This document shows positions 25,433 to 62,961 of a DNA stretch of 64,000 nucleotides, in pieces. Source of the stretch: Hygrocybe punicea (taxonomy: Eukaryota > Basidiomycota > Agaricomycetes > Agaricales > Hygrophoraceae). The first letter of the stretch is position 1; each line of letters begins with the position of its first letter. Position numbers and translations under genes: made by a program. Under the pieces are notes generated by a model. The model was given only the letters and a program-made list of their open reading frames with translations, searched no databases and was not told the origin of the DNA. The DNA lies in assembly GCA_963556145.1 (NCBI GenBank), contig OY744461.1:7388891-7452890 (forward strand), given 5' to 3'.

Positions 25433-25984
25433 ACCGCCCCTCCAGCGCCCTTACCCATCACCAGTGGACCCGATGCGACACCTCTGTGAAGGTTAGTACC
25501 CACCAGTTCAATGGTAGCACCCCATGTATCCTTATTTTTTGTTTCTTTTATTTCTCTTTTATTTGCTGTATTATCATGTATATTAGTCTATCTATAGTAA
25601 GTACAAGAATAAATATATTATATACAAAAAAATCAGCTTGAAAAGACGTGGGGAGAGTGAGTAAGTCGAGCTCGCTGTTGCTGACAGTGAGCTCGAGGGT
25701 CCCTGACAGCGGCGGAAAGCGAACCTGATCCCCGTTTTGGACAGATATCATTATCTAATCTACGATATACAACTTGTAGTAACAATGTTCCCGGTATTGC
25801 TGGGGATATTGCTGGAGTAGAGAAATAAGGCAATCAAGTCAAACTATACTAGACGGCAACAGCCATCGCCTAGTATCATTTGACTTGTAGTGTGGGAAGG
25901 TTAGGTGGTACCTGCAAACTGACACAGCCATACTTATGTAATCACAGTACATAGTGCAGTGTAGTATAGTTCAGGCTCCTACCC

Positions 25985-26114
25985 AAGCCGATGTAGAGAG
26001 GGTGAGGGCTGTATCCTAGTACCAGGTGAAGGATGTTTCCGAGACTTAGGACTCCGCATCAAAAAGTTTCAAACTCCATACTCTTAATCCCCTCGACCCT
26101 CTCTACAGCGGCTT
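25985..26114. repeat. left subterminal hairpin of the DUF6589-RecQ element
   Basis: Arms 25985-26008 and 26090-26114 pair over about 23 bp (core TGTAGAGAGGGT with ACCCTCTCTACA) with one mismatch and one bulged C; the loop is about 80 nt. The right end of the element has its own counterpart with a different core sequence. Confidence 0.8.
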
Positions 26115-26200
26115 GCGTCAAACGTTTGTAAACAATCAGCCACACCTGATTTGTAATTAGACAATACTTTGATAACCCAAATTTAGACACGATCGCAATC

Positions 26201-28868
26201 ATGCTCAATAGACAAGTCATAGCGTGTATTCTCCAGTGCTTCTCTGACAATAATGCAACCATTTGTGAATTTCTGGTCTCCATAATTCACTACCCGCACC
26301 TTCGAGAACATGCCCTCACACTCCAGTTCCTCCATGGCCTTACAGATGTCTTGACCAGCATATCCGAGTCTGATCAGCCTGGACGGCAGCCTATCATAGA
26401 TTGGGCCCTCACTCTTATCAATCGTAGCCATGCAAAATCGATCCAAGAACTCACGAGTGCTAAACACGGCTGGCATTTTTCTGCTAACAAAACCTCCGTC
26501 GAGCAGCTCCGTGAATTCCGTCTGGAGCATATGGTTAGAACAATCCAAAGTGTCGCACCTGGGCTATGGGGTACAGTTACAAACCTCCTCTCTGCCAACC
26601 CAAAGCTTGTGAAACGAAGATCAAGTGGTTATCTTGTTCCAGATGCCCCACTCACAGAACCTGAAGACTTGGATGAAGAAGATGAGACGGAGTTCTGGGA
26701 GGATGTTGACCGGAGCTTAGGACAGGAAGAGAACACTGCGGAAGCCAAACCTTCACGTCCTCGGTCCAAGACACCAGAGGAAAGGCTGGCCATCCTCAAC
26801 TTGGTGCATCATCAACTTGGAGTCGATGCTTAGATTTTTCATCTTGATGATGTTCCTCCTCACTAGAAAGCTACCTGCATAATCAGTATCATGATGCAGA
26901 GTTCCAATCAGAAATGCAACATACTCCAAAGCATCTTCAGCGTTTTTCTCCATTCTTGCAACGCGCCACAAAAAAGTCATCCAGTCCTTGGCACGGTTGG
27001 GAGTCTCGATCTCCAGCACCACTATCCTGCGTGCCATCAAATCGCTGTCAGCTGAGACCTACAAAACTCTCCGGACAATGGGTCAATCCTTAAATGTTGG
27101 TTACACGTACGACAATTTCGACGTCGACTTCAAAACAAATCAGCCCACGGTTGAGAAATCAGCCACAACCCTTACACATATGACATCTGGAACAATCACA
27201 TACCTCGATCATGGTGTCAGCGCGGATGATTTGAAGTGCTCGCAGGAGTTGTGGAATATCTCTTTGCTTAATCCCAAGATCGCAGCTAATGACCTTCCAC
27301 CGCCTCGCACCTACACCGATTTCATCAAGTTGCATCCAGAAGAATGGGATCCAAAGGGACTTACTCGTCGAGAGCGGTTTCAGGCATGGGTTTTCTACCG
27401 TGATCTCTGCAAGTACGGACCAAGTTACTTCACTCAATTCCATGAGTGCCTCGGTCTCCCTGAATTTGTTGACAAGATTCCCGTGGTCAAGATGCATCAT
27501 GCACCTGCAAAGGCAATGGATATCAACCAATCGCGTGTCTCTGGGAACATTCAAGCCATTGCAAACCTTTTGGACCAAGGCGGCGTCGGCGACATCACTG
27601 AAGATGAAGTCACACCAGATACTGTCGACATTAGGGATCATGTTATCATCTTCAATGGCGACCTTTCGACTGGGGAGCATTTGGACGTGGTTTTGGAGCG
27701 TCGCTCAATTGAAGACACGCCAACATTACGTTTCCAGTTCCTTATATTTGTATTCGGACTTTTCCACATGAAGATGGCATGCGCAGAAGCTCTCTGGCGC
27801 ATTTTTATCGAGAAGAAACAGTGTCGGGACGACGAAAACTCTCTCATGCAGCTTCTGGCACTCCATCGGTCGAGGGAGACTGGCAAGTTTGGTTCAAAGC
27901 CCGGGTTTCGTCGCATGCACGAAGTCATCCTCCAAGAGGGTGTTGCTCTGCGATTGGATGCTTGGCGTGTGCAAATCAGCAAGAACAATCCCGCGTGGAA
28001 ATCCCTTGACCTCTTCGCACAATCCAAACCATCTCATCAACTTCTCGTCAGCACTGCAACCGACTTGGCATGCCAATATGTGGCGGGTTCACGGTCCCCA
28101 GCAGTTGACGTCCACAAGCTACGTGAGCGCCCTCCTCAGGAACGCGACGCGCAACGCGAGAACATTCTGTTGATGCACCGCTACTTCTTACTCTATGAGG
28201 AGCTCACGCACGCGATGAACTACGGCGACATTGGACATCTCGAAACCCTCTTTCCACCTTGGATTGCGATCTTCAAAGCTACCGGGAAGCATAAGTACGC
28301 CGCCAGCCTCAGCAAATTCCTGAACGATGTCCATTATCATTATCCAGAGCCGCTCTGTCGCGCAATCCGGTACAACATCCTAGTCAATGTGAGTGGCAAG
28401 GCGGGTGCCTTTAGGGCCCCGGATTGGGTGCAGGAATTTCATAACTTAAAGACTAAGGTTCATGTTGTGACAATGTCAAGTTGTTCCGTTTTCTCATGCA
28501 CCTTGTAGGTCATCTTTGGGGGCAGCTATTCAAACTATACGAAGGATCGTGTCATCGACGAATCGTCCCTTACCGAAATATACCACAATTGCCATACAAA
28601 CATCGAACGGAACTTCCTGCTGCCAGGTTTGACGAGTCGGCACACCCCACCGGATCTCATGCGGACATTCGAGGTTCTGCAAGCATACATGCACGCACAC
28701 GGACCGAATGAATTTCGTGTCGGACGCAAATCATCTTATTCCATACCTGATATGTTGAACAAAGGGTTAGAGCTACTTTTACATCCAGATAGTGAATCGA
28801 CGACAGAGCTGGAAGGAGAAACAATGGAAGGAAATGTGGAAGAAGAGGACGTATTGGCAGATCTGTAG
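26201..28868 (+). pseudogene. DUF6589-domain protein, one-base frameshift
   Basis: Exons 26201-26803, 26867-28457 and 28509-28868 give about 850 aa if one base is removed from an A6 run near 26971-26976; the frame then reads NAPQKVIQSLARLGVSISSTT as expected. The C-terminal two thirds match my memory of the DUF6589 family: HPEEWDPKGLTRRERFQAWV, KMHHAPAKAMDIN, FNGDLSTGEHLDVVLERR, FGLFHMKMACAEALWR. The conserved D, H and E/D residues in these blocks could be catalytic, but no function is established for the family. It probably supplies the element's transposition function, by position and by being the only non-helicase gene. The frameshift suggests this copy is dead unless it is a sequencing error. 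Confidence 0.8.
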
Positions 28869-28885
28869 ACTACTGGTAATCTACA

Positions 28886-31328
28886 TTAAATTGAATAGAA
28901 ATGATTGGGAGGTTGTTGCCGAATCAAACTGGTTGAATCTATGAGAGAGGTGCTGACTGTTGGAATTGTCGGGGGTACATTCTCAGTGTTCGCGCGGACA
29001 GAGACTTTGGTCGGGTGGTTGGGACATTTTTCTCGGTTGCTCGCTGGTAAGGGCAGCAGAGCATTACAATACAACACAAAGACCACAGAAAACGAGATGA
29101 ACGCACCAATGTGTCCTTCTTGCCCACAGGCACTGCAACGATTACATCTCTTCACTTTCTGGATGATAGGACTGCTGTTGATCAATCCTTGCTGCGGAGG
29201 AGGTTGGCGTGGTTGCAATGGAGTCGTCATAGTCAACGGCGCCGCCACACGAGGCTGAAAGCGTCGAATTAGTCCCAATATTTCATCAATCTCGTCGTTC
29301 GTCCATGTCCAACGCGTCTCCCGTTTAAGATCGTCCGCGTTCTGGATCTTGCCAAAGTGAGTGCAGTCACTGATGCGTTTGAGGATTTCATCGGTCATAT
29401 ATAGGCTCAGACCTATATCATAAAGTGCAGGTGCGCCATATCTCTCCATCGTTTTGTGTTGGCGAAGCTCGTGTAGTTCCGAGCGCAGGGATCAATCCTG
29501 CGTGTCCGCCTTGTAATCAGCCAGGCGAGAACGACGAGAGGCTCCTTGGGACCGCTGAGGTGGGTCGACAACTGCAAAATCCATGAAAGCGGCTGGTGTG
29601 CAAGGTTCACAGCAGATCTGACTGCGTATGTAGACACAGCGTGGACAGCCAGTTGGTATGTCTGGGCGACACTGGAGGTGGTCGGACTCTGTTTTAGGTA
29701 AGCACGGAAGCAAATTCGCTAGCGTCACTTATGCTCACCCAGTCCCACATTGCCAAAATACGCATCGATAGGCAAGCGTTCACATCCAATCTCGGGCCGT
29801 GTTGCTGCATTCACGAAATCCTGCAAGACTACATCCAATACCTTCGACTTTTGCGTCGTTTGCACGGGTTGTCCTGCCACTGGGGTTTGGTTATAGAGAA
29901 GCTGTAAGTGGTTGTATTTCTCCTTCCCTTCGTTGGACTGAATGCCTTCATCCACTAACCCCACAGACAAGGTGCTGGATGAACCTGGCGCAACTGGAGT
30001 TTGATGAACCTTCTTGGAGGGAGGGGGATTTCCTGCCGGTTCGTTGTTCTTCCTCTTTTTCTGGTTAGCTTTAGTTGCTGCCCTCTCATTTGCTTTCTCA
30101 ATTGCACCGTCAAAGTACTTTTGCTCAGCAAGTAGTAACGCTCTCCCTCGTAATGCTGGATTGCGGACAGCTCGTCCAAATCTCTGCCAAAGGGTACACA
30201 TGTCGCAGGTGACCCTCCACGGGATGACTAGTTCAATGTCTGGTAAGTCTATGCCCTGAATGTGAATTAGAATGGCATATGGAGTGATGATCAATGCCTA
30301 GTGCGCACCATGCCAAAAGAATCAGTGCAGAGAAGTCCCCAAGTGCGTCCGTCTTTGAGGTCATCACACCCTTTCTCTCGAAATTGTGGTGACATATCAG
30401 AATTAAACCATTTTATTAGGTCCTGACGATTTTGGGGCAAGCGATTGCGGAGGAATTTGGCAGCTCAGAGAGATTCGGCAATATCATCAAAGAACACGAG
30501 GAATTTGGCTGGGTGCCAATCTGGTGCCGGATTCTCGGGCACCAGGAATGCCAGATCGAGAAAGCTATTTGCAGGGTGGGCAAGTGGTCGCACGGCAAGC
30601 TCTATGTTAGGCCGGTCATTGGAACGATGCATGACATACAAGTTCTCGTCTCGGATTCGCAGCGACTGCTTCACATCGGATAACACTAGGGGTGGGAGAG
30701 TTGCTGAGACCAGGTAGAAAGGGATGTTTCTTGGAAGGACATATCGCAATCTTTCAATTTGTCCATAATCCACACGGAATCCGGCCCACTTGGAGATGCA
30801 GTGGGCCTCGTCGAAGGTGAGACTGATTAATCTCTTTGTGAATTCACGCTTTTTCCATAACCCGGCAAAACCCCAGGTGTCTCGCATCAACATCTCAACA
30901 TTCGTCAACACGACGCGATATCGAAGGTCTTCAATCTCCTGTAGGCATGCCGATCAACTAATATTAAGTATGTGGATCAAATCTTCATCAAAAACACGTA
31001 CTTTGAACGTCTCCGGAGAGGCATTCTCAGCGGTGACACATATAGCCGATATGCCATGTGTCACAAGAGACTGGACATTCAGGGATCCAAGGACATTGAG
31101 GGGCACACATATGATCTGTATTCCGTCTTCTCGGAATAGCAGAGGCATCCAGAAGGTAAGGGTCTTGCCAGATCCTGTCGCAGAAATGAGAATGACATCC
31201 CGGTCACCTTTCATGACAGCCTGGACTATTTTGGCTTGCCATAGGCATGGTTTGTAGCCAAATCTTTTTGCAGTGGTTTCCCAGAGCTCTTGGATGGAGG
31301 GGACTGGCTTTGGAGGTTTTGCTACCAT
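28886..31328 (-). pseudogene. RecQ-type DEAH helicase with C-terminal zinc knuckle, two in-frame stops
   Basis: Exons 31328-31002, 30938-30309, 30255-29739, 29688-29107 and 29043-28886 close in phase to 738 codons. Helicase motifs in order: ATGSGKT (I), FDEAHCISKW (II), VSATLPP (III), FGMGIDLPDIELVI (V, across an intron) and QRFGRAVRNPALRGRA (VI), the superfamily-2 RecQ signature. A basic linker follows, and a CxxC...H...C zinc knuckle near the end (CSACGQEGHI) is split by the last intron. In-frame TGA codons at 30467-30465 and 29494-29492 break it; both are one C-to-T change from CGA. Otherwise the frame is intact, so decay is recent. Confidence 0.85.
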
Positions 31329-31410
31329 GATGCGTAGTGCACAGGGGTACTATTATACTATTTTGGACTTATCAGAAATGTGGCGCAGTTTGTTTACAAA
31401 CGTTTGACGC

Positions 31411-31538
31411 AAGCCGTATTGAAGAGGGTCGAGGGATTTAAGAGTACGGAGTTTGAAAAAAAGAACATGCGGAGACAAAAGATATCGGCTTCTCCCGCAC
31501 TGTAGGATGAAGTCCCTCACCCTCTTCAACTACGGCTT
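31411..31538. repeat. right subterminal hairpin of the DUF6589-RecQ element
   Basis: Arms 31411-31435 and 31514-31538 pair over about 24 bp (core TTGAAGAGGGT with ACCCTCTTCAA) with two single-base bulges. The C bulge before GAGGG is at the same place as in the left hairpin. Confidence 0.8.
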
Positions 31539-31559
31539 GGTAGGAGCCTGAGTATAGTT

Positions 31560-36422: not shown

Positions 36423-39761
<3,339 letters not shown>

Positions 39762-60229: not shown

Positions 60230-62961
60230 TTAAAGCTTCAAGCTGCAAACAGCCAACTGTTGGCGAGGCACTTTGCAAAAAGGACTCTGACGACCAGAAG
60301 TCGTATTCAAGTCGAGGCCGCAAAGTGTGAGAATCCATTCACATTCTTTGGCCTGCAAAACGGCGGCTACTTTCCCTACATCATCACCAGCAATAATGAC
60401 CACTATTTCACCAACCCCATCAGGGTGAACGGGAACGAGCAAACGCAGTGGGACTAACATGGTGCGGGGAACCCTGCTCAACAATTTGACATTGATTGCT
60501 GGAGGGTCGCCTGTGACCGGAGTGCCCAGCGTATATGCAACCTTGTTCTCGTGGGTGCCATTTTCCCAGCTACAATCCGGCGTTCTGGATCCAACGATGC
60601 GCACTTTAATAGACTTTCCACGTAAGTGTTCTGTCGCAAGCCAATGTTCCGCAGGACCTGCGTGAGTAAGCCTGCGTCAAAAACAGGGGGGACAGGAAAC
60701 GGGAAGCCTTATACTAGATAATAGGGCCTGGGGAGGTGTTTCATCACGGTATTCTGGTGCATCAAGCCCTTGTTGTGCGTCTCGTAAATGCAGATCTTGA
60801 CCGGAAGCCGTGTTCCTGGGCGTCAACTCTGGAATGAATGCCGACATCTCATTTAGACATAGAGGCGGCCGTGGGGTTCGAGAGGAAGGATCCCAAGCCG
60901 GTGTCTGAGAATTAGACGAATCCTGCGCAGGCGTTGACAGGATAATCGAATCGGAAACAGCTGGCGACAGCAATTTCAAGTTGCTCGCGAGGATCTCTGG
61001 CTGGTGGGAAAGTGGCAGCCGAGTACTGCGTAATTCGGAGGTGCTCAGAATCAGGACAGTTACGGTTGGACAAATAAGAAAAATTTACTATTTATCAGCC
61101 AGAAAGTCTCCCCTGATTTGCGCAATCTTGCCGGTAGCTTCTAGATAGACACTGTACGTCTCGAGGTATGCATGACGGTCTTGAATTATCCCATAGTACC
61201 CTCTATAGCGGTGTGCTTTCACGACGAGAACATGTCTGCCGGCCATTGGATCTCTGCCCCGCACAAGACCCCGAGCCACTTCAAATTCACACCCCTTAGA
61301 TTGTTCTCTGACATAGGCCTCTGGCAATGAGATCCGACAATCTGCTTGAGCAAAGTCCACGTTGAGGGTATGTACCTGGAAGTCATACAGACTCGGAGGA
61401 GAGGGATCCTGCAGTAAAACAGTATAAGCTGCCATGGCAGGGTAAATGACATCACAAACCTCCGAATAGCTTGACCATGAATGATCAGAGAGGACTTTCA
61501 GCATGCTATCGCAAATCCCCAGTACATAACCGCGGCTTCCTGCCCAAAAGCCATCCCGCACCTCCACATAATCTCCAACTTTGAAGCTTTTGCTAACCTG
61601 ACACGCTAGCAAGTCAAGCAAAGGCTCGTCTTCGAAGGTAATTCTGGCATCAGGCTCCTTCCGTAGTTGGACTTGCACAGTATTTTCATGCTTGTCAACT
61701 ATGGTACCGAGGAAACCCTTCTGCTCCCCACTGATGACCCTGACGCGATCGTTAATGCATAGAGTAGCAGCAGCATAGTCAGTATTCCATCTATGCTTGA
61801 GTGCTTTGTCGAATCCCAGACTCTCGCTGAAGAGTCTGAGTTCTTCATAAGTTGGATGTACATTTTTTGTGGTCAAATCATTAAGGGCGAGCACTCGTTC
61901 CAATAGACCATGCTTGAAAACTTTGCCTTGGAATTTGAAACGATCAATCCGTTGCTGAACGGTGTCCGGGCCAAAAACCGTGCGAGCCCGGTCGGGATCG
62001 AAGAGTGACTGGTCAGAACGAGTGTAGCGCGTGCGCTTGGTATCAGAATAAGAGAGGCGGGGTATCACCCACAATCTCACCCTCGAGGTAAACGAGTCCA
62101 TGTCAGTGACAAAACCGAGGTCCTTTTTATACGTGCCTTTCTTAATGCGCACCCAATGACCAAATGCGACCACGTCCGTGTTTCGCATTTCCAGGAGTTG
62201 TACACGCTCAGAAATCGGCACAAGCATGATTTCCTCGTTCAGAAAGACAGTGTGCACATTTCGAAAGGCGCGCTGGATGTCTACCCTAGCAGGGGCTTCT
62301 ACGTATATCGTTCCAGGGATGGAGGGTTGTGAGAAAGCAGAAACAATCTTGAAGTTCTGGACGCGTCGACTTTGTCGAAGTACAAGTTCAAGACAGTCCG
62401 ATTCAAAGCCGTGCTGAAGATGTTGGATCAACCAATAGCATCGCAAGAGAGGATTCGCTTACCTTCACCCTGACACGCCAAAGGCTCACGTCCCCGGGCA
62501 TCGGTTTACGGAAAGCCGGCGGTTCATTGCTTGAACAATCACTCGGGTGGATGGTTAATCGTGGTAGATGCCGCTCCCGGTTTATCATGATGTGTGCCTG
62601 AGTTGACAGTTCAACGTGTTCCTCACGAGCAAGTTGCCAGTGATTGTCCCGGGGGTGACGATGACTCCTTGTGTACGGAAAGTCGTGATCGAGTGGTAAA
62701 GTCACGCTTTGATCATCTGAGTCGTCCCCCGAGACGAAATCTGTATGAACAGGTGCGTGATTCGGACTTGAAGGGAAGGGGAGATACAGCAACAACTTAC
62801 CATGAAGGCTTCCGTCGTCATGCTCATCCGAGTTGTCGCTGCGAACATCGGCTTCCAAGTCCAGGAAAGTGGATACCTATTGCCACCGTAGAACTTGGGG
62901 AATATAATAATAACACATTCTCAACTCTTACCGTCAGTCGTCGTTTCTTCAAGTTTAACAT
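60230..62961 (-). CDS. Spt5-like NGN/KOW-domain protein
   Basis: Six exons (62961-62932, 62876-62801, 62740-62463, 62413-61089, 61025-60715, 60657-60230) close to 815 aa. The start MLNLKKRRLT and acidic FLDLEADV region precede an NGN-type domain (PGTIYVEAPARVDIQRAF). KOW-type blocks follow: FGHWVRIKKGTYKKDLGFV, DRVRVISGEQKGFLGTIV, VGDYVEVRDGFWAGSRGYV, LVVKAHRYRGYYGIIQD, and a C-terminal unit (PDCSWENGTHENKV ... VGEIVVIIAGDDVGKV). Exon 4 appears to stop at TAG 61090-61088, but its last G is the donor of a GT-AG intron, so the protein continues. It differs from canonical Spt5 (no C-terminal repeat domain) and belongs to a divergent mushroom subgroup. Confidence 0.78.

What the first reader, a model, noticed from the sequence alone, without database searches (positions are those of the whole stretch)
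25972..31550. Candidate undescribed transposon class: a DUF6589 protein paired with a RecQ helicase
Seen: exact terminal inverted repeats, ~170 bp of end homology, a perfect 9-bp target duplication (AGTATAGTT), and only two genes inside, tail to tail. Known: RecQ helicases unwind DNA and are not usual transposon passengers in this arrangement; DUF6589 has no known function. Inference: DUF6589 is the transposase or an essential partner, and the element moves with help from its own RecQ. Conserved D/H/E residues in GDLSTGEHLDVV and GLFHMKMACAEALWR are candidates for a divergent RNase H-like active site.
Basis: partly seen in the sequence, partly recalled or inferred. Interest (0 to 1): 0.88.

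Follow-up and report, generated by a model that had tools for sequence, protein, structure and literature searches.

The report
Decayed AcademH-like fungal DNA transposon
This is a worn-out copy of a cut-and-paste jumping gene that carries its own likely cutting enzyme and a DNA-unwinding enzyme; the kind appears to be already described (AcademH), but the copies here suggest what its 'unknown' protein does and how its ends are built.

Summary
A 5,579-bp element (25972-31550) has 12-bp exact inverted ends, a perfect 9-bp duplication (AGTATAGTT), and a DUF6589 and a RecQ-type helicase gene tail to tail. In 22 copies of the same genome with both ends found, 17 duplications are perfect 9-mers, 4 have 1-2 mismatches, 1 is 10 bp. 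Of 72 DUF6589 loci, 52 have a RecQ within 6 kb, 50 of these tail to tail; random placement averages 1.2. DUF6589 is probably a DDE transposase: two models (pLDDT 84.7, 91.3) align best with P element, Hermes and other transposases or RAG1, and D42, D225, E419 are kept in two divergent lineages. It is not an undescribed class: papers citing Kojima 2020 describe AcademH, a helicase-bearing Academ lineage with 9- or 10-bp duplications, present in Basidiomycota; that paper itself was not available. The window copy looks dead (transposase frame change, helicase stop). Possibly new: the DUF6589 fold placement, and inverted repeats inside each end that tend to change together.

The parts
25963..25971 (.). 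left target-site duplication AGTATAGTT
   Evidence: sequence
31551..31559 (.). right target-site duplication AGTATAGTT
   Evidence: sequence
25972..25983 (+). left terminal inverted repeat, 12 bp exact (CAGGCTCCTACC)
   Evidence: end motif of the family 118 hits against 4 control
31539..31550 (-). right terminal inverted repeat, 12 bp exact
25981..26118 (+). left end region with an internal inverted repeat: arms 25981-26003 and 26096-26118 (23 nt, 91% complementary)
   Evidence: I4; co-variation test
31410..31539 (-). right end region with an internal inverted repeat: arms 31410-31439 and 31510-31539 (30 nt, 70% complementary)
   Evidence: I5
26201..28868 (+). transposase gene (DUF6589): 5' ORF 26201-26833, probable unresolved intron near 26800-26870, frame change at an A-run between about 26970 and 27004, main ORF from 26988, exon end 28388, intron 28389-28508, last exon 28509-28868
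   Evidence: exon structure inferred from splice signals and homologues
27111..27113 (+). codon of D42, candidate first catalytic acid (YDN motif, strand 1)
   Evidence: D in 46 of 46 lineage-1 and 23 of 25 lineage-2 sequences
27660..27662 (+). codon of D225, candidate second catalytic acid (GDLST motif, after the strand at 220-224)
   Evidence: D in 71 of 71
28242..28244 (+). codon of E419, candidate third catalytic acid (GDIGHLE); D414 five residues before is the alternative
   Evidence: E419 in 67 of 71, D414 in 70 of 71
29725..31328 (-). RecQ-type helicase gene: exon 1 31328-31002, intron, exon 2 30938-30309 with in-frame TGA at 30465-30467, intron, exon 3 from 30255 to 29725 or beyond
   Evidence: exon limits inferred from splice signals

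Best explanation
It is a probably non-functional copy of an AcademH-type DNA transposon (Academ superfamily, helicase-bearing lineage) in a fungal genome. Shown: copies of the family sit between 9-bp duplications at many places; copies share CAGGCTCCTNCCAAGCC ends, and the longer ones mostly carry a DUF6589 gene and a convergent RecQ-type helicase gene; short derivatives that keep the ends and the starts of one or both genes also sit between 9-bp duplications. Predicted: DUF6589 is a DDE transposase of the RNase H fold with a large all-helical insert before the third acid, as in hAT (Hermes), P element, Transib and RAG1. Inferred: the transposase binds both ends, perhaps at the two inverted sites that many ends carry, cuts the element out and joins it to target DNA with a 9-bp stagger, which repair turns into the duplication; the RecQ helicase assists, most likely by unwinding the ends or processing intermediates; the short derivatives are mobilised in trans by complete copies.
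Confidence: 0.9

Rival explanations
1. A genuinely undescribed superfamily that only resembles AcademH in carrying a helicase and making 9-bp duplications.
For: Pfam still calls DUF6589 a family of unknown function; no paper in the library mentions DUF6589; no Academ reference sequence could be compared.
Against: Helicase content, 9/10-bp duplications and presence in Basidiomycota all match the AcademH description in citing papers; a coincidence in all three is unlikely.
Confidence: 0.06
2. KolobokH: a Kolobok transposon with a RecQ helicase, known from fungi.
For: KolobokH encodes a RecQ helicase and is fungal (PMC9587614, passages).
Against: Kolobok makes TTAA 4-bp duplications; none of the 22 copies here does: the duplications are 9 bp (one 10 bp) and of varied sequence. 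In KolobokH the helicase lies downstream of the transposase domain; here it is a separate convergent gene.
Confidence: 0.01
3. The DUF6589-RecQ pair is a host gene pair or passenger picked up by an unrelated transposon, with the transposase elsewhere.
For: The window copy is broken, so its own activity is not shown.
Against: No other Pfam family over its cut-off was found in the six ORFs of the element that were scanned; 50 of 52 pairs keep the same order; the DUF6589 model is transposase-like; a second, 22%-identical DUF6589 lineage in the same genome also sits beside a convergent RecQ-like gene (L067).
Confidence: 0.03

Closest known systems
AcademH (Academ superfamily of eukaryotic DDD/E transposons, Kojima 2020, Mob DNA 11:15; not read here, known from passages of citing papers)
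   Same: transposase plus helicase, 9- or 10-bp target duplications, found in fungi including Basidiomycota
   Different: nothing tested differs; transposase homology, termini and gene order of the published families could not be compared
KolobokH (PMC9587614, passages)
   Same: fungal DNA transposon with a RecQ helicase
   Different: TTAA 4-bp duplications; [quoted passage not shown] other transposase superfamily
P element, hAT (Hermes), Transib and RAG1 transposases
   Same: predicted fold: RNase H-like core with a large helical insert before the third acid
   Different: about 10% sequence identity; other duplication lengths (recalled: 8 bp for P and hAT, 5 bp for Transib and RAG); no helicase gene (recalled)
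MuDR/MULE
   Same: 9-bp duplications (recalled)
   Different: no MULE domain found in the six ORFs scanned

Membership tests
AcademH | encodes a helicase beside the transposase | tested here: met
   RecQ-type helicase; paired at 52 of 72 DUF6589 loci
AcademH | 9- or 10-bp target-site duplications | tested here: met
   22 copies: 17 at 9/9, 4 at 7-8 of 9, 1 at 9/10
AcademH | DDD/E transposase (Academ is listed among DDD/E superfamilies) | tested here: met
   by prediction only; Foldseek alone not significant
AcademH | transposase homologous to known Academ transposases | not testable with these tools
   no Academ reference sequence at hand; paper not held
KolobokH | TTAA 4-bp target-site duplication | tested here: not met
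MuDR/MULE | MULE-type transposase domain in Pfam | tested here: not met
   six ORFs at E up to 0.1: DUF6589 and DEAD over cut-off; Helicase_C, ResIII and one unrelated family under cut-off
hAT / P | 8-bp target-site duplication (recalled) | tested here: not met

The most novel reading that the evidence does not exclude
DUF6589 (Academ-type transposase) is a member of the hAT/P/Transib/RAG group of DDE enzymes with a helical insert, and each transposon end is a two-site module: two inverted copies of a lineage-specific 15-25-bp sequence about 90 bp apart that change together. The dedicated RecQ would open or refold these ends (for example extruding a hairpin) so that the transposase can pair and cut them, which would explain why the helicase is kept in the element and why the stagger is 9-10 bp rather than the 3-4 bp of the nuclease-bearing AcademX.
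Probability: 0.25. Interest if true: 0.55.

Novelty: new member of a known kind. Interest (0 to 1): 0.35.

Why it matters
It suggests a function for a large Pfam family of unknown function: two searches found 508 and 324 relatives (the sets may overlap; the best 120 of each are listed, and the named ones among those are fungi by genus). It supplies a genome with many helicase-bearing copies, well-kept ends and short derivatives in which the role of a transposon-borne RecQ could be tested. It does not add a new superfamily.

Tried and rejected
New superfamily: rejected because AcademH fits. KolobokH: rejected on duplications. Programmed frameshifting in the transposase: the window and L033 both change frame at the same place, but to different relative frames, so independent decay is more likely. 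PDB sequence search with the DUF6589 profile found nothing significant (best E 0.75, GabR). I tried to find the ends and duplication of the second DUF6589 lineage (L067/L068, 98.8% identical over 4.7 kb): a different terminal sequence was seen by eye, but one copy is cut at its left, perhaps by a Helitron (recalled CTAG end; the neighbouring ORF was not scanned), and the duplication was not determined. Description of DUF6589 or PF20231 in print: no paper for DUF6589, one irrelevant physics paper for PF20231. Gene order of published AcademH was not found in the listings or in the passages I read. Animal relatives of DUF6589 did not appear among the listed hits, but only 120 of 508 and 120 of 324 are listed, so absence is not established. 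An empty-site comparison was not made: no second strain is at hand.

Limits of the counts: one search's 13 pairs were picked by eye as facing end motifs within 17 kb from the 100 of 118 hits that one search lists; all 13 are reported; a facing pair 19.7 kb apart on C7 was not tested; no cross-pair control was run on these 13. Hits are lower bounds by the tool's own note. One search merges exon-wise hits into loci, and two contig lengths (C35, C36) in its random control were my estimates. One search's permutation keeps neither relatedness nor end type, so 0 of 5000 is not a clean probability; 51 ends were collected (at most one mismatch in the motif, plus the window's left end) and 5 near-identical ones dropped; several ends (for example L055 +, L056 +, L063) score below the cross-pair median. 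The 752-residue model is of the nearest full-length relative (P0001), not of the window; alignment A1 used 75 of the 120 listed relatives (508 found) plus the window ORF; A3 used 45 of the first and 24 of the second list plus the window ORF and one L067 ORF.

Full report
Observation. Both 9-bp flanks read AGTATAGTT (25963-25971 and 31551-31559), the ends are inverted and identical for 12 bp, and the element is 5,579 bp long. Beyond the tip the two ends are alike over 165 nt at 76% identity. ORF 26988-28508 on the plus strand is DUF6589 (Pfam E 3.7e-82). The minus-strand gene is a RecQ-type helicase in at least three exons, inferred from splice signals: its first part matches the RecQ family model at 3.7e-29, under the model's full-length cut-off, and RecQ, WRN, RECQ5 and BLM structures (best 1.8e-17). 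The part after the stop matches helicase C-terminal domains weakly, DEAD-box RNA helicases slightly better than RecQ (1.9e-7 against 5e-6; best PDB match DeaD 1e-6). Both genes are damaged in this copy: a frame change between about 26970 and 27004 and an in-frame TGA at 30465-30467.

Copies. The window's genome (92.2 Mb, 42 contigs) holds many relatives, at roughly 64-74% DNA identity over most gene matches and up to 88% over the ends. The end motif CAGGCTCCTNCCAAGCC, one mismatch allowed, occurs 118 times against 4 for the reversed pattern. Among the window and 20 fetched loci, 9 showed both ends, and all 9 have a perfect 9-bp duplication; cross-pairing flanks of different loci gave 0 of 72 at 8 or more of 9. 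Thirteen further facing end pairs gave 8 perfect 9-bp duplications, 3 with one mismatch, 1 with two, and 1 ten-bp duplication with one mismatch. The 17 perfect duplications look, by eye, weakly palindromic with an A/T-rich centre (base counts). Three derivatives of 854-871 bp (L045, L047, L048) keep both ends and the start of the helicase gene, two of them also the start of the DUF6589 gene, and have perfect duplications; so the ends probably suffice and the enzymes can act in trans (inference).

Gene pair. By tblastn, the window and 12 of the 20 loci hold both DUF6589 and helicase pieces in tail-to-tail order (L031-L037, L039, L040, L042-L044); L041 and L050 showed only DUF6589, L038 and the short L045 only the helicase, the short L046-L048 starts of both, L049 neither. 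Genome-wide, 103 DUF6589 hits merge into 72 loci and 134 helicase hits into 89. Of the 72, 52 have a helicase within 6 kb, 50 of these tail to tail; random placement gave 1.2 on average and 5 at most in 200 trials. The remaining 20 of 72 have none that near. A second DUF6589 lineage in the same genome (L067; 22% identical over 297 alignment columns to P0001, E 3e-11) also faces a RecQ-like gene.

Ends. Many ends carry an internal inverted repeat. In the window the left arms are 23 nt, 91% complementary, and the right arms 30 nt, 70%. Arm sequences differ between ends, yet on average an arm matches its own end's partner better than another end's: over 46 non-redundant ends, same-end complementarity averages 10.6 against 8.8 for cross-end pairs, and 0 of 5000 permutations reach it. 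Relatedness is not controlled, and some ends show no repeat. The right end of the second lineage, with different sequence, has the same plan (a 14-nt motif, taken from that end itself, recurs inverted 78 nt on; 0.03 matches expected). This suggests two binding sites per end or a foldable end; it is my inference.

Comparison with the known. A paper citing Kojima 2020 states that AcademH makes 9- or 10-bp duplications while AcademX makes 3 or 4, and relates this to the helicase and nuclease that they encode (PMC10045372, passages); another states that AcademH occurs at low copy in Basidiomycota, Ascomycota and Mucoromycota (PMC10799480, passages). Academ is listed among DDD/E superfamilies, and KolobokH is a fungal RecQ-bearing lineage of Kolobok, which makes TTAA duplications (PMC9587614, passages). 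The Marasmius oreades genome paper reports putative non-autonomous Academ elements and a search for autonomous ones (PMC8290104, passages). I did not read Kojima 2020 (not held). All AcademH features that could be tested are met; direct transposase homology could not be tested.

Verdict. Real, well delimited, and very probably a member of a known kind. Within searches of this library no paper identifies DUF6589; the fold placement and the paired arms inside the ends are the parts worth following up.

Noticed in passing
window 28886-29449 (-): The region after the helicase core encodes a CSACGQEGH stretch resembling a zinc knuckle (recalled motif), perhaps split by an intron; Pfam reported no family there.
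   Followed up: no
L067 (G000:C33:1289500-1298500) and L068 (G000:C40:5220000-5229000): Second DUF6589-RecQ lineage: two copies 98.8% identical over 4.7 kb, other terminal sequence, duplication not determined; the L068 copy holds a further insertion of about 1.4 kb with its own 21-24-nt inverted ends.
   Followed up: partly
L067:89-2938 (+): A 949-aa ORF that looks PIF1-like by eye (not scanned) ends just before the left edge of the L067 element; the junction reads CTAG, as Helitron 3' ends do (recalled), so a Helitron may have cut this copy.
   Followed up: no
L059 (G000:C1:7780200-7783800): A 3.3-kb derivative with perfect 9-bp duplication that carries two inverted copies of the helicase start, one near each end.
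   Followed up: no
window 37625-38521 (+) and 61088-62446 (-): Ordinary host genes near the element: an MCM helicase exon and an SPT5-like gene.
   Followed up: no
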